Assembly: GCA_013138765.1 (NCBI GenBank)
Contig: WTCB01000066.1
Location: 1-35,658, forward strand
From: Candidatus Nanohaloarchaea archaeon
GTDB taxonomy: Archaea; EX4484-52; GLR71
Direction: 5' to 3'
DNA: 35,658 bases
Positions 750-34,610 of the stretch are shown in pieces. The translations under genes were made by a program, and so were the position numbers. Below the pieces are notes generated by a model. It was given only the letters and a program-made list of their open reading frames with translations, did no database searches and was not told the DNA's origin. The stretch's first letter is position 1. Every line of letters begins with the position of its first letter.

Positions 750-1412
750 TCATTTCTCAATATAACTCCAATATGAGTTATCACCTATTATTACATGGTC
801 TAAGACTTTGATGTTTAATAACTCACCTGCTTTTATCAATTTCTTTGTTATAGAAAGATCTTCGTCAGATGGCGCACAATCACCTGAAGGATGGTTGTGG
901 ACCAATATAATTGAATTTGCGCTCTCTTTTATGGCGGACTTAAATACTTCGCGAGGATGGATAAGGGAAGCATTTAATATACCAATTGATATTGTCTCGT
1001 CTTTTGTGATCTTGTTTTTGGTGTCAAGGTGCAATATTACAAAATGCTCGCGGTCAAGATCTTTTAATCTTTCATGCGCATAATTAAAAACGTCTTTTGC
1101 TGATTTGATTGAAACGTTTTTATCTTGTTTTGAAATATTGTATCTTTTATTGAATTCAAATAAAGCTTTTACTTGCATTGCTTTTACTGGACCTATACCT
1201 TTAATCTTTTGAAGTTCGGGAAATGATAATGTGGATAGATTAGAGAGACCATAAGTTGTTATTAAGCGGTTGCTCATGTCGATTACGTTTTCGTATCTTG
1301 TTCCTTTTTCAAGAATTATCGCTAACAATTCTGCATCACTTAAAGAATAAGCTCCATTTTTTTTAAATCGTTCTCGAGGTCTGTTCTCTTTTGATATGTC
1401 TTTTATGCGCAT
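750..1412 (-). CDS. radC: RadC family protein (JAB/MPN domain)
   Basis: N-terminal RPRERFKKNGAYSLSDAELLAIIL, HhH-like KIKGIGPVKAMQ, JAB motif LVHNHPSGDCAPSDEDLSITKKL. Confidence 0.92.
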   Translation of the reverse strand: MRIKDISKENRPRERFKKNGAYSLSDAELLAIILEKGTRYENVIDMSNRLITTYGLSNLSTLSFPELQKIKGIGPVKAMQVKALFEFNKRYNISKQDKNVSIKSAKDVFNYAHERLKDLDREHFVILHLDTKNKITKDETISIGILNASLIHPREVFKSAIKESANSIILVHNHPSGDCAPSDEDLSITKKLIKAGELLNIKVLDHVIIGDNSYWSYIEK

Positions 1413-3498: not shown

Positions 3499-4287
3499 AT
3501 GATGTTTATGGCTGTCAGTGATATATTGAAAAATGCGTACAATCTTGTGAAAAATAATTTTCGTGAATCTTTGCTTATAGGTCTCATCTTTTGGTCTGCG
3601 GTATTAATTATTGAAGGTTTTTTCATAGTTACAGGTCTTGTTACGCTTGAACAATTATCAATTGGTACTTCTCCTATGATATCAGTCATGAGCATATTCC
3701 TATCTTTTGTGCTTGCCATGCTTTCGGGTGGTGTCTATTATAGCATCAATCTTATGCGCGATAAAAAGATTAAGCTATCAAATATTCGCAAAGGTATAGA
3801 TACAAGATGGGCTGATATTTTTAAAGCGTTCATCGTCATTCAATTTATTGCGGCAATTGTTGGATCTATGATCAATATTTTGATGGATAATTATATGTTG
3901 ACTTCAACATCTGTCAGTGTTTTTGTGTATTCTTTATTTTTTGTCATTGCTTTATCTGTTCAGCTGTCACTTATCTTTTCAATACCTATAGTTGCTGCAA
4001 CTAAAGTTGATGGGTTTTCCGCTGTTAAAAAAAGTGTGAAGTTTTTTACAGGTAATGTCTCTTTAGTTGCAGGGGCAATATTGTCTGTATTTGTGATATT
4101 TTTTTCAGTTATGCTTGTCATATTGGGAATAACTGGAATTGCCGGATATCTGGCTGAGATAAGTATTTATCTATCTATACCATTTTTATTGGCCATTGCC
4201 GTTTTAATGTTTTTTGTACTGTTCTTGGCGTTCCCATTCATGTCATTCGTGATTGTCGGTGTCTATAAAGAAGGTACGAAAAAGTAA
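3499..4287 (+). CDS. Polytopic membrane protein of unknown function
   Basis: 262-aa ORF with multiple hydrophobic segments; upstream TATA-like tttatata. Confidence 0.75.
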   Translation: MMFMAVSDILKNAYNLVKNNFRESLLIGLIFWSAVLIIEGFFIVTGLVTLEQLSIGTSPMISVMSIFLSFVLAMLSGGVYYSINLMRDKKIKLSNIRKGIDTRWADIFKAFIVIQFIAAIVGSMINILMDNYMLTSTSVSVFVYSLFFVIALSVQLSLIFSIPIVAATKVDGFSAVKKSVKFFTGNVSLVAGAILSVFVIFFSVMLVILGITGIAGYLAEISIYLSIPFLLAIAVLMFFVLFLAFPFMSFVIVGVYKEGTKK

Positions 4288-4349: not shown

Positions 4350-7043
4350 ATGGAATTCATTATTGACTTATCAATACTTTCATCTTCTGACCGTGAAAAA
4401 GTAGGGGATAAAGCAATTGCATTATCACAACTGATAGCTGCAAAGTTTCCGGTACCATCTGGTTCTGTGATAACCAATGCCGGGTTTCATGAATTTGCTG
4501 TAGAAAATAATATTTCTGAATCAATAATTCGGCTGTTGCAGGAGATAGGTAATTGCGGTCCGGAAGAACTTGCTGAAAAATCTAAGAAAGTGCGCGATTT
4601 AATCCTTTCCGGGAAAATTCCTAAAAAATTAAAAGATGAAATCAAGGCCACATATTCTTCATTGGGCATAAGCCCTGAGATGCAGGATCTTAATCATGAT
4701 ACGCTCGGGACAATAAATGCAGGCGGAAATAATGCTTCTGTTGCCATAAGGTCCAGTGTTTTTACTAATGGTTCTAAAAAGATAACATTTAGGGGTTTCT
4801 ATAAATCTTATCTTCATGTAAGTGGGCTTCAAGGTGTGATAGACAAAATAAAAGAATCATGGGCAAACATATACAGCGATGAGGCAATATTTGCAAGGCA
4901 GAAGTATAATGGTGGTCAGGATATATTTACTGGCATAATTATTCAGAAGATGATCGATGGTGAAAAATCCGGCATGTGTTCTACTGCAAATCCTATGACA
5001 AATAATCTGAATGAGATTGTCATTGAAAGCAGTTTTGGTTGTGGGCTTGTGTCTGATGGTGAGATAACGCCTGATGTCTTTATAACTGATAAGACTTCTT
5101 CAGCACTTAACGGCAAGAAAATAAATCATAAGGAATGGCGTTTTGTGAAACACGCAGTCAGTGGAGATGTGATAAAAGAAAAAGTATCTCCTGAACTTAC
5201 TAATTCTGAATCAATTGATGGAAATGAGATAATTTCTATTTCTAATCTTGCAAAGAGTGTTGAAGCTTTTGCAAAGTATCCAGTCTATATAGAATGGGTC
5301 TTCAAGAGGGATAAGCTTTATCTTGTTGATGTGTCTAATATTTCGACAATCAATAAACCGCTTAAAGCGATATATGAAACATCTGAGGTATCTGCATTTA
5401 ATGGGATCGGTGCAAACAGCGGTAATGGGAACGGTGTGGCTGTCAAGGTGCACAATATTTCTGATGTCTTAAAAGTTAGGGCGGGAAATATATTTATTGC
5501 ACCAGTCATTGAACCTTCATCAATACTTGTCTTAAATCGTGTGGGTGGTGTCATTTCTGAGAATGGTGGCCTTTTGTCTGATATGTCTATTCTGTGTCGT
5601 GAACTTGATATTCCCTTAATTGTCAATTGTCCTGGTATCTGTGGCAATATTTCCGATGGGACTAAAATTGCAATGGATGCTACTTCAGGGAAGATATATG
5701 TTAAAGCTGTACCTCAAGATGATATGGATAATGTGGGACAAGAGACATCCAGTCCGCAAGCGAATAATGTGTCTTTCAATGTGTCATCTGATGTTTCTGA
5801 TACTGGAAGTAATGTTCGCGATGTGGACGCGTCTGTTGATATGAGCGGTTCTGACACAGATGGTGCTGTTTTGCAATCTGCACCGGTTGGTCATTCTTTT
5901 GAAGATAAGAATTCTTTGTCTCAAGGTGCAAGCAATGTTGGCGGTAATGTATTTCGTGATTCAAATCTGCAGCAATCTGCAGATGCGAATAATATGGATC
6001 TATCAGTCTCTGAAAGAGAGAATGTTAATTTAAATAATACCAGTGACAATAATAGTATTGATACAGATATCATTAATAATTCTGTTAATGTCAATGACAT
6101 AAATAATAATGTTTCTAGTGTGGATAATATGATTGAAGAAGACCCGTTAGCAATGATTACCGGAACAAAAGTCAAGGTTCTTGCTTCGGATGTGCAGAAT
6201 GTTGAGGAAGTTTTTGACGGTATTGGTCTTTTTCCATCTGAACTTGTATTATTAAATTTAGGGAAGCATCCAGACAAGATACTTTCTGAGGGTATGGAAG
6301 AAGAATTGGTCAAGTATCTTGAGACTAAATTGAGTCCTATTGTTGAATCAGCATATCCTAAATCTGTAACATTCAGGACATTGAGCGCGCAGACGTCGAC
6401 TCTTAGCGGTCTTCCTGATGGAAGTCATGAGGTTGTTGAGGCTAATCCTAAGCTTGGTTGGAGAGGTATAAGGCGGACTCTTGATTCTCCCGCAATATTT
6501 AAGGCTGAGCTTAAGGCGCTTAACAATCTTATACTTAAAGGATATAAAAATATAGAGATACTTCTGCCTTTTGTGCATCATCCGCAGCAGATATATGAAA
6601 TAAACAATATTTTTAAAGAGTGCGGTATCGATATGCAGAACCTTAAAGTCGGTATAAGTGTTGAAGTACCTGCTGCCGGATTGGCGTCAACTGAATTTGT
6701 TAAGGCTGGCATTGATTTTGTATTCATCGATTCAGACAGGCTTGCAGAACACATGCTTGGGATAGATTCGTTGAATGAAAAGGTGAATAAGCATTTTGAT
6801 GCAAAACATCCCGGGGTACTGAGGATGATAAAGATGATCATTGACGGCTACAAAAAAAATAAGGTTCCTGTAAGTGTGGGCGGGTCTATGCTCAATGAGG
6901 GTGAGATAATCGATAAGCTTGTTGAATTTGGTGTGGATGCAATAGTTGTTCCGGCTGACAAGGCAAAAGTTTCAAAGTATGTTGTTGCGCGCGCTGAAAG
7001 GAAGATGCTTCTGGATATCATGCGAGAGCGTGGCAATTATTGA
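4350..7043 (+). CDS. Phosphoenolpyruvate synthase-like protein, catalytic residues apparently lost, Asn/Ser/Asp-rich linker before the C-terminal barrel
   Basis: ATP-grasp region VAIRSSVFTNGS..FRGFYKSYLHVSG, QKMIDGEKSGMCSTANP; mobile-domain remnant ISENGGLLSDMSILCRELDIPLIV; PEP-barrel NPKLGWRGIRRTLDSPAIFKAELKAL and VGISVEVPAAGL. Confidence 0.88.
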   Translation: MEFIIDLSILSSSDREKVGDKAIALSQLIAAKFPVPSGSVITNAGFHEFAVENNISESIIRLLQEIGNCGPEELAEKSKKVRDLILSGKIPKKLKDEIKATYSSLGISPEMQDLNHDTLGTINAGGNNASVAIRSSVFTNGSKKITFRGFYKSYLHVSGLQGVIDKIKESWANIYSDEAIFARQKYNGGQDIFTGIIIQKMIDGEKSGMCSTANPMTNNLNEIVIESSFGCGLVSDGEITPDVFITDKTSSALNGKKINHKEWRFVKHAVSGDVIKEKVSPELTNSESIDGNEIISISNLAKSVEAFAKYPVYIEWVFKRDKLYLVDVSNISTINKPLKAIYETSEVSAFNGIGANSGNGNGVAVKVHNISDVLKVRAGNIFIAPVIEPSSILVLNRVGGVISENGGLLSDMSILCRELDIPLIVNCPGICGNISDGTKIAMDATSGKIYVKAVPQDDMDNVGQETSSPQANNVSFNVSSDVSDTGSNVRDVDASVDMSGSDTDGAVLQSAPVGHSFEDKNSLSQGASNVGGNVFRDSNLQQSADANNMDLSVSERENVNLNNTSDNNSIDTDIINNSVNVNDINNNVSSVDNMIEEDPLAMITGTKVKVLASDVQNVEEVFDGIGLFPSELVLLNLGKHPDKILSEGMEEELVKYLETKLSPIVESAYPKSVTFRTLSAQTSTLSGLPDGSHEVVEANPKLGWRGIRRTLDSPAIFKAELKALNNLILKGYKNIEILLPFVHHPQQIYEINNIFKECGIDMQNLKVGISVEVPAAGLASTEFVKAGIDFVFIDSDRLAEHMLGIDSLNEKVNKHFDAKHPGVLRMIKMIIDGYKKNKVPVSVGGSMLNEGEIIDKLVEFGVDAIVVPADKAKVSKYVVARAERKMLLDIMRERGNY

Positions 7044-31364: not shown

Positions 31365-32174
31365 ATGAGCATCATATCTGATCTTAATATCAGTCCTGAT
31401 AAAAAGTTAGGGCAGAACTTTCTTGTAGATAAAAATATAGTCGGTGTCGAGATCAGAGAGGCAGAAGTATCTGATAAAGATACAGTCCTTGAAATCGGTG
31501 CGGGTTATGGTGCGCTTACTCTTGAACTTGCGAAAGCTGCCAAAAAAGTGATAGCTGTCGAACTGGATCCTGAACTTGTTGAGATTCTCGAGGATAGGCT
31601 GGTTGAAGAGAATATAACAAACGTTGAAATCATACAGGGCGATATATTAAAGGTAACTGTACCGCCATTTGATAAATGTGTGGCAAATATACCTTATCAG
31701 ATATCTTCTAAAATTATCGAGATGCTTGGCAGGTTGGGTAAATATTCGGTATTAATCATGCAGAGAGAGTTTGCAGACAGGCTTGTTGCAAAACCTGGAG
31801 AGAAAAATTATTCTAGGATCTCTGTTCTTGCGCAATATCACTTCAATTCTAAGTTTTTAAGAAAAGTGGGCAGAAAATGTTTTTATCCTGCACCTAAAGT
31901 TGATTCGGCGATAATTAAGCTTCTGCCAAAAGATACAAAAGCAAAAGTATCGGATGAAGAGTTCTTCTTTAAGTTTGTCCGGGCGGCATTTATCCATAAG
32001 AACCAGAAATTGTGGAAGGCGATATCGCATTCCAAGCGCGAGATGGAACTTGACAAAAGTGTACTTTCAAAGATTGGTCATGAGTTATCATTGGCAGATG
32101 TCCGTGTGCGCACAATGGATATTGATCAGCTTGCTAAGTCTTCTGAGGAGATGTTGGTTCTTCTTAAGAAATGA
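31365..32174 (+). CDS. ksgA: 16S rRNA dimethyladenosine transferase KsgA/RsmA
   Basis: KKLGQNFLVDKNIV, VLEIGAGYGALTLELA, ANIPYQISSKIIEML, FYPAPKVDSAIIKL. Confidence 0.92.
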   Translation: MSIISDLNISPDKKLGQNFLVDKNIVGVEIREAEVSDKDTVLEIGAGYGALTLELAKAAKKVIAVELDPELVEILEDRLVEENITNVEIIQGDILKVTVPPFDKCVANIPYQISSKIIEMLGRLGKYSVLIMQREFADRLVAKPGEKNYSRISVLAQYHFNSKFLRKVGRKCFYPAPKVDSAIIKLLPKDTKAKVSDEEFFFKFVRAAFIHKNQKLWKAISHSKREMELDKSVLSKIGHELSLADVRVRTMDIDQLAKSSEEMLVLLKK

Positions 32175-33800: not shown

Positions 33801-34610
33801 TTATTCTAACCTGTCTTTGATTTTATCAAGCAGTGTGCTCAATTCTTCAAAAGACAGCATTATCACTTTCTTGTCAAGTGTTTTTATGTCAAGGTTTAAG
33901 GTTGCTATGAATTCGCGTGATTTGTTTTTGGTATATCGTTTTTTGTCTTTCAATGTCTTATAATCAATTATCGCTTCAAGGAGTGCGTTCTCTGTCTTTT
34001 TGGTGCGCCGGTCAAAAAGAAGTCTTGTTATATATCTTATTTTGTCATCTATTAGGCTCTCTTTTTTAATTGGTCTTATGCTTATGATTGCTGATGAAAT
34101 TCGTGGTCTTGGTTCAAAAGAACTTTTAGGCACTATCTCAAGAAATTTCATATCAAAATATGCAGGGGCAAAGAGTGATAAAAGTGATGGCTCTCTTTCC
34201 ATGTCAAGCATCTTTTCAGCAAAACTTTTGTTTACTGTCAGTATGCCTTCTTTGAAATCATATCTTGATAATTTTAATATCAATGGCTCTGAGATGTTGT
34301 ATGGGATGTTTGCGACTATCTTGTCGAATTGTGGCAACTCACTTTTGAGTACGTTTTCATATATTATGATTAGGTTCTTGTATTTTTTTTTGAGGGTTTC
34401 ATGGTGTGTTTTTAGAGTTGTGTCTATTTCGTAGGACGTGAGTGCGCATCCGGTTTCTGCTAGCGCTTCTGTCAGTATTCCGGTACCAGTTCCTATTTCA
34501 ATTACTGTCTCTTTTTCTTTTATGTCTGCAAATATTATGATATTGTCTATCATTGTCTGGTCTGTCATGAAATGCTGACCGAATCTTGAGACTTTATCTT
34601 GTATGGGCAT
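33801..34610 (-). CDS. Second, diverged KsgA/Erm-type rRNA adenine dimethyltransferase paralogue
   Basis: RFGQHFMTDQTMIDNII, VIEIGTGTGILTEALA, DKIVANIPYNISEPLILKL, SSFEPRPRISSAIISI. Confidence 0.87.
   Translation of the reverse strand: MPIQDKVSRFGQHFMTDQTMIDNIIIFADIKEKETVIEIGTGTGILTEALAETGCALTSYEIDTTLKTHHETLKKKYKNLIIIYENVLKSELPQFDKIVANIPYNISEPLILKLSRYDFKEGILTVNKSFAEKMLDMEREPSLLSLFAPAYFDMKFLEIVPKSSFEPRPRISSAIISIRPIKKESLIDDKIRYITRLLFDRRTKKTENALLEAIIDYKTLKDKKRYTKNKSREFIATLNLDIKTLDKKVIMLSFEELSTLLDKIKDRLE

What the first reader, a model, noticed from the sequence alone, without database searches (positions are those of the whole stretch)
4350..7043. PEP-synthase homologue that has lost its phosphocarrier His, PEP-site Arg and catalytic Cys: a likely pseudoenzyme
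Established: PPS/PPDK needs the mobile-domain His (GGxTxHAAI), a barrel Arg (GIGLxRTEF) and the Cys in xxCGQ. Seen: GGLLSDMSI puts Asp411 (codon 5580-5582) at the His site; GIGLFPSEL puts Pro629 (6234-6236) at the Arg site; VSVGGSM puts Gly844 (6879-6881) at the Cys site. GTNDLTQ also becomes DSDRLAE. The fold signatures (NPKLGWRGIRR, EVPAA, ATP-grasp RSS) and the intact ORF remain, suggesting selection for a non-canonical role.
Basis: partly seen in the sequence, partly recalled or inferred. Interest (0 to 1): 0.62.

Follow-up and report, generated by a model that had tools for sequence, protein, structure and literature searches.

The report
Dead PEP synthase kept by archaea
A group of tiny symbiont-like archaea keeps, beside an apparently working PEP synthase, a second copy in which every catalytic centre is damaged, yet natural selection still preserves the protein, so it probably does a non-catalytic job that nobody has described.

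Summary
ORF 4350-7043 (897 aa) has all three PEP-synthase (PPS) domains. Asp411 replaces the phospho-His, Pro629 the barrel Arg and Gly844 the Cys; DSDRLAE replaces GTNDLTQ. All 30 canonical PPS rows scored keep these residues.

It is not a pseudogene. All 7 genomes of the genus carry it intact. dN/dS is about 0.07 in the ATP-grasp domain, 0.02-0.10 in the barrel and 0.55-0.83 in the disordered linker. The same genome has a second, motif-complete PPS on another contig. The pseudoenzyme is not a recent duplicate of it (AU p about 1e-52). It belongs to a set of degenerate archaeal-type copies spread through this DPANN phylum. Some members still keep the His, so the PEP-forming half was probably lost first.

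An AlphaFold model folds all three domains. Its barrel matches the octahedral assembly domain of Pyrococcus PPS (TM 0.90). Best reading: a conserved pseudoenzyme acting through assembly or regulation rather than chemistry. The pseudoenzyme status is well supported; the exact role is inferred.

The parts
4350..7043 (+). Degenerate PEP synthase paralogue (pseudoenzyme), 897 aa + stop
   Evidence: ORF; Pfam PPDK_N, PEP-utilizers, PEP-utilizers_C; orthologues in all 7 genomes of the genus
4350..5369 (+). ATP-grasp domain (aa 1-340); Lys21, Arg134, Glu315 kept; D313->Y, Q327->D, R329->S, GLGE Glu lost
   Evidence: dN/dS about 0.07 (0.12 for the deepest pair); pLDDT mostly 70-94
5370..5708 (+). Mobile (phosphohistidine) domain aa 341-453, His replaced
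   Evidence: dN/dS 0.14-0.19
5580..5582 (+). Asp411 at the phospho-His position (Asn in G001 and G003)
5709..6137 (+). Asn/Ser/Asp-rich linker aa 454-596, predicted disordered, length-variable
   Evidence: pLDDT below 50 for 455-604; dN/dS 0.55-0.83; total length 858-982 aa among orthologues; linker lengths
6138..7040 (+). C-terminal PEP-binding-type barrel aa 597-897, catalytic residues lost, fold kept
   Evidence: dN/dS 0.02-0.10; 8a8e TMt 0.90, rmsd 2.1 A
6234..6236 (+). Pro629 at the first PEP-site Arg position
6735..6740 (+). Asp796-Arg797 replacing Asn-Asp of GTNDLTQ (metal ligand Asp lost)
6879..6881 (+). Gly844 at the catalytic Cys position
3499..4287 (+). Upstream membrane protein (262 aa, weak sub-threshold GPDPase_memb match), 62 bases before the pseudoenzyme gene, same strand; possibly co-transcribed, relation unproven
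   Evidence: in the phylum found only in this genus, directly upstream in 6 of 7 genomes (in G004 the contig ends at the PPS gene)

Best explanation
This is a conserved pseudoenzyme. It descends from an archaeal-type PEP synthase whose three-step chemistry (ATP -> phospho-His -> PEP) has lost essential residues at every centre, while the three-domain fold is kept by purifying selection (shown). The organism's PEP synthesis is carried by a separate, motif-complete PPS of another type (presence shown, activity inferred). The protein most likely works through assembly: its barrel, the most constrained part, is closest to the octahedral 24-mer-forming domain of hyperthermophile PPS, and it would act as a non-catalytic oligomeric scaffold or regulatory subunit from which the ATP-grasp and mobile domains hang on a disordered linker (inferred). 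I hold the pseudoenzyme status at about 0.93; the confidence given is for the whole statement including the assembly mechanism.
For: Catalytic residues lost at all three centres, against 30/30 canonical PPS rows that keep them. The same state in all seven genomes of the genus, from several sequencing projects. dN/dS about 0.07 / 0.15 / 0.02-0.10 in the three domains against 0.55-0.83 in the linker. Separate motif-complete PPS at G000:C38. AlphaFold model with 25 sequences: mean pLDDT 72, domains mostly 70-94, linker about 25. Foldseek: barrel to 8a8e 'PPSA C terminal octahedral structure' TMt 0.90, 2.1 A, 39% identity, and to 9dae, the S. marinus multimeric PEP-binding domain, TMt 0.84. The review PMC8100219 states that the S. 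marinus PPS is a 24-subunit octahedral complex and that in P. furiosus the smaller octamer was the active form, so large assembly and activity are separable. Positions where six aligned copies of the family share a residue found in at most one canonical row include former active-site columns (S329, M412, C416, D796, E800, S846), which suggests a re-set pocket rather than random decay.
Against: No oligomer was modelled and assembly-interface residues were not mapped. Three ATP-site residues (Lys21, Arg134, Glu315) and two PEP-site residues (Arg676, Glu772) remain, so ligand binding or a new reaction is not excluded. pTM is only 0.51, so the relative placement of the domains is not reliable. The fold similarity of the barrel follows from homology and does not by itself show assembly.
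Confidence: 0.5

Rival explanations
1. Prozyme-type regulator: the dead copy binds the organism's own working PPS and switches or stabilises it.
For: A canonical PPS accompanies the dead copy in most genomes of the phylum. In G007 the order is L10e - dead copy - canonical PPS on one strand with a 200-base gap, and in G019 a dead barrel-only relative sits next to the canonical PPS. PDRP (DUF299), the known PPDK/PPS regulator, is stated to be absent in archaea (PMC8100219).
Against: The canonical PPS is of a different type (PpsA-like), only 26-28% identical to the dead copy in the ATP-grasp and barrel domains. In the window's own genome the two genes are on different contigs. PPS is expected in most such genomes anyway, so co-occurrence is weak evidence.
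Confidence: 0.22
2. Remodelled enzyme or ligand sensor: the pockets were re-set for another nucleotide or metabolite, with or without new chemistry.
For: New residues at former active-site columns are themselves conserved in the family (S329, D796, E800, S846). Lys21, Arg134, Glu315, Arg676 and Glu772 remain. A PPDK-derived neofunctionalised kinase is known (VadK, PMC13400623).
Against: Both substrate sites and the phospho-carrier have lost essential residues. The H site is D in some and N in other orthologues, which argues against phospho-Asp. VadK keeps its His and ATP site.
Confidence: 0.18
3. Translation- or membrane-linked accessory protein acting with the neighbouring gene products.
For: Ribosomal protein L10e (identified by its sequence) lies directly upstream in G007, G008 and G013, which belong to two families. 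A membrane protein lies directly upstream in the window's genus.
Against: Neighbours differ between lineages, which looks like drift in gene order.
Confidence: 0.06
4. Pseudogene or relic under relaxed selection, or an assembly artefact.
For: Loss of catalytic residues; whole-gene dN/dS higher than in the canonical PPS (about 0.15 against 0.03-0.05 for the same pairs).
Against: Open reading frame in all 7 genomes, barrel and ATP-grasp dN/dS 0.02-0.12, only the linker relaxed.
Confidence: 0.02

Closest known systems
Archaeal (Pyrococcus / Staphylothermus type) PEP synthase, EC 2.7.9.2; PDB 8a8e, 9dae
   Same: Three domains in the same order; barrel 39% identical to 8a8e, TMt 0.90; RTL and NPxLGWRGIRR barrel motifs
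   Different: Lacks His, the ND pair, Cys, first PEP Arg, ATP-site D/Q/R and the GLGE Glu; carries a disordered linker of about 140 residues
PpsA-type PEP synthase of the same organism (G000:C38, 783 aa)
   Same: Same superfamily and domain order
   Different: All catalytic motifs intact; separate clade; forced grouping rejected with p-AU 4.9e-52
VadK (Rv1127c, M. tuberculosis), a PPDK-derived histidine kinase (PMC13400623)
   Same: Descendant of PPDK/PPS that left PEP metabolism
   Different: VadK keeps ATP site and His and has lost the PEP domain; here all domains are kept and all centres damaged
Pseudoenzyme paralogues that regulate a working paralogue (trypanosomatid DHS and AdoMetDC prozymes; from own knowledge)
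   Same: Dead paralogue retained beside a live one
   Different: Different enzyme families; no complex has been shown here

Membership tests
PEP synthase (EC 2.7.9.2), as an enzyme | ATP-grasp, mobile and PEP-binding barrel domains in order | tested here: met
   Pfam; Foldseek
PEP synthase (EC 2.7.9.2), as an enzyme | Phosphocarrier His in GGxTxHAAI | tested here: not met
   Asp411 (Asn in G001, G003)
PEP synthase (EC 2.7.9.2), as an enzyme | PEP-site Arg pair, metal Glu/Asp, catalytic Cys | tested here: not met
   First Arg -> Pro629, Asp -> Arg797, Cys -> Gly844; Arg676 and Glu772 kept
PEP synthase (EC 2.7.9.2), as an enzyme | ATP-site K, R, D, E, Q, R and GLGE Glu | tested here: not met
   K, R, E kept; D, Q, R and the GLGE Glu lost
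PEP synthase (EC 2.7.9.2), as an enzyme | Score above the NCBIfam PEP synthase cut-offs | tested here: not met
   PRK06464.1 398.6 against 598; TIGR01418 357.1 against 739.75
Conserved pseudoenzyme | Homology to a catalytic family with loss of essential residues | tested here: met
Conserved pseudoenzyme | Maintained by purifying selection in several species | tested here: met
   seven genomes
Conserved pseudoenzyme | No activity of the purified protein | not testable with these tools
   needs an assay
Octahedral PPS-type assembly | Barrel fold of the 24-mer-forming PPS domain | tested here: met
   TMt 0.90 to 8a8e
Octahedral PPS-type assembly | 24-mer formation / conserved interface residues | not tested
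   no coordinates or multimer prediction available
Prozyme-like regulator of the working PPS | Physical interaction with and effect on the live paralogue | not testable with these tools
   only gene adjacency in G007 and G019

The most novel reading that the evidence does not exclude
An old family of dead PEP synthases in one DPANN phylum. The ancestral archaeal-type PPS was superseded by a PpsA-type enzyme, lost its PEP-forming half first and its phospho-His later, and lives on as a non-catalytic oligomeric cage or regulatory subunit.
Probability: 0.4. Interest if true: 0.65.

Novelty: new variant of a known kind. Interest (0 to 1): 0.5.

Why it matters
Genomes of about 1 Mb are not expected to keep a 900-residue protein without use. 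A central-metabolism enzyme stripped of its chemistry but kept under strong selection gives a natural series of intermediates: His still present in sister genera, absent in the window's genus. It also offers a test of whether the large PPS assemblies of archaea have a function apart from catalysis. Domain-based annotation would call such proteins PEP synthase and wrongly credit the organism with a second active copy.

Tried and rejected
The first AlphaFold job, with six close relatives, gave pLDDT 33.7 and was discarded; adding 19 PPS from viral contigs fixed it. A viral-contig search with the dead-family profile found nothing. Six high-scoring proteins in other archaea (G271, G305, G220, G185, G288, G073), at first taken for distant dead copies, carry all motifs and are canonical PPS with long charged linkers. 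A relocated phospho-His was looked for among the invariant residues of the mobile domain: none. A conserved C416/C427/C431 triad in the mobile domain is confined to the window's genus (only C416 extends to G007 and G008), so no metal or redox site is claimed. A recent duplication of the organism's own PPS was rejected. Literature: no held paper combines 'phosphoenolpyruvate synthase' with 'pseudoenzyme'.

Full report
OBSERVATION. The ORF at 4350-7043 (+) is intact and encodes 897 aa. Pfam finds the three PPS domains: PPDK_N at 16-337, PEP-utilizers at 378-447 and PEP-utilizers_C at 613-883. Both NCBIfam PEP synthase equivalogs that match best are well below their curated cut-offs. Every coordinate and motif in the finding is right. 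The HMMER alignment to Pyrococcus PPS (8a8e) puts Asp411 at the His, Pro629 at the Arg, DSDRLAE at GTNDLTQ and Gly844 at the Cys; the codons were read directly.

THE LOSS IS WIDER THAN REPORTED. In an alignment with 30 canonical PPS rows, 30/30 keep K, R, D, E, Q, R, H, R, R, D, E, N, D and C at the key columns and the Glu of GLGE. The window protein has lost D (Tyr313), Q (Asp327), R (Ser329), the GLGE Glu, H (Asp411), the first PEP Arg (Pro629), D of RTLD (Ser679), N and D (Asp796, Arg797) and C (Gly844). It keeps Lys21, Arg134, Glu315, Arg676 and Glu772. The ATP site, the phospho-carrier and the PEP site are therefore all damaged. No His is invariant in the mobile domain of the genus. The roles of these residues are taken from established knowledge of PPDK/PPS.

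GENOME CONTEXT. The genome (1.26 Mb, 127 contigs, 88% complete) is DPANN-like; records of close relatives are titled Nanohaloarchaea, Aenigmatarchaeota and DPANN archaeon. A second PPS at G000:C38 (783 aa) has every motif intact. All seven genomes of the genus carry the dead copy without internal stops. Directly upstream in the genus lies a membrane protein of about 260 aa, found nowhere else among the 34 genomes of the phylum that are held. In G007, G008 and G013 the upstream neighbour is ribosomal protein L10e (named from its sequence), and in G007 the canonical PPS follows the dead one on the same strand after 200 bases. The L10e order is shared by two families, which suggests that these dead copies are orthologous.

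SELECTION. Nei-Gojobori dN/dS between orthologues is 0.07-0.12 for the ATP-grasp domain, 0.14-0.19 for the mobile domain, 0.02-0.10 for the barrel and 0.55-0.83 for the linker. The canonical PPS gives 0.03-0.05 for most pairs and 0.09 for the deepest pair. dS reaches or exceeds 1 in some pairs; the closest pairs (G006/G004 and G003/G001, whole-gene dS below 0.4) give the same picture. The protein is a maintained product, not a relic.

PHYLOGENY. The 29 canonical proteins in the tree form one 100/100 group, and all 14 degenerate copies of this and related lineages lie outside it. Holding the family's dead copies together with the organism's own PPS type is rejected (p-AU 4.9e-52; with the whole PpsA-type clade 2.9e-5). 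Long branches are present, so a single origin of all 14 is likely but not proven. The group G000/G006/G001/G005/G007/G008 is secure (100/100). Barrel identity is higher to archaeal-type PPS (35%) than to the own PPS (28%).

ORDER OF LOSS. The Cys is gone in all 13 dead copies with data. At the ND pair the Asn has become Asp or Glu in 13/13 and the Asp is lost in 12/13 (G037 keeps an Asp). His remains in G007, G008, G011 and G037. The simplest reading is that the PEP-forming half died first and the phospho-His later, more than once (D/N, P, N and R states). This is inference from the distribution.

STRUCTURE. A model built with 25 sequences has mean pLDDT 72, three confident domains and a disordered stretch 455-604. 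Foldseek finds PPS, PPDK and rifampin phosphotransferase. The barrel matches 8a8e, the octahedral C-terminal PPS assembly, with TMt 0.90 and 2.1 A over 298 columns, and 9dae (S. marinus, multimeric PEP-binding domain) with TMt 0.84. The review PMC8100219 states that S. marinus PPS is a 24-subunit octahedral complex and that in P. [quoted passage not shown]

MECHANISM. Shown: homology, loss of essential residues at all catalytic centres, maintenance by selection, kept fold (predicted), presence of a motif-complete second PPS. Inferred: no catalysis; action through assembly, because the barrel is the most constrained part and is closest to the cage-forming PPS domain. The main rival is a regulator of the canonical PPS, favoured by the adjacency in G007 and of a barrel-only relative in G019. 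A re-set ligand pocket remains possible, because several former active-site columns carry new conserved residues.

NOVELTY. PPDK/PPS relatives with new functions are known (rifampin phosphotransferase, VadK), but they keep ATP site and His (VadK: PMC13400623; rifampin phosphotransferase: abstract of PMC4844700, and own knowledge). I found no described PPS relative in which all centres are lost and all domains kept; the library searched holds no paper joining the terms PEP synthase and pseudoenzyme. That is absence in one library only. Hence 'new variant of a known kind'.

Noticed in passing
window 31365-32174 (+) and 33801-34610 (-): Two rRNA adenine dimethylase (RrnaAD) genes within 3.3 kb; one may be a divergent paralogue.
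   Followed up: no
window 750-1412 (-); L067:9547-10272; L068:6648 onward: A RadC-family gene near the dead PPS in the window's genome and just upstream of a dead PPS in G033 and G023, which belong to a different family.
   Followed up: partly
G012:C2 (L125:3735-5693), G017:C2 (L126:4259-6214), G014:C48 (L128:9249-9995), G019:C65 (L124:3468-4220): Even more degenerate PPS relatives: proteins of about 650 aa with hardly any barrel match, and proteins of about 250 aa that are barrel only and lack the catalytic residues.
   Followed up: partly
L030 (G040); perhaps also the long PPS frames of G171 and G239: A canonical archaeal PPS interrupted just before the phospho-His motif by what looks like an intein with a LAGLIDADG-type sequence.
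   Followed up: no
L197-L218 (IMG/VR contigs): Many viral-collection contigs, several of 200-300 kb, encode full-length PPS with the His motif.
   Followed up: no
L107-L112 (G271, G305, G220, G185, G288, G073): Canonical PPS of other archaea with a charged linker of 93-140 residues at the same place as the disordered linker of the dead copy.
   Followed up: partly
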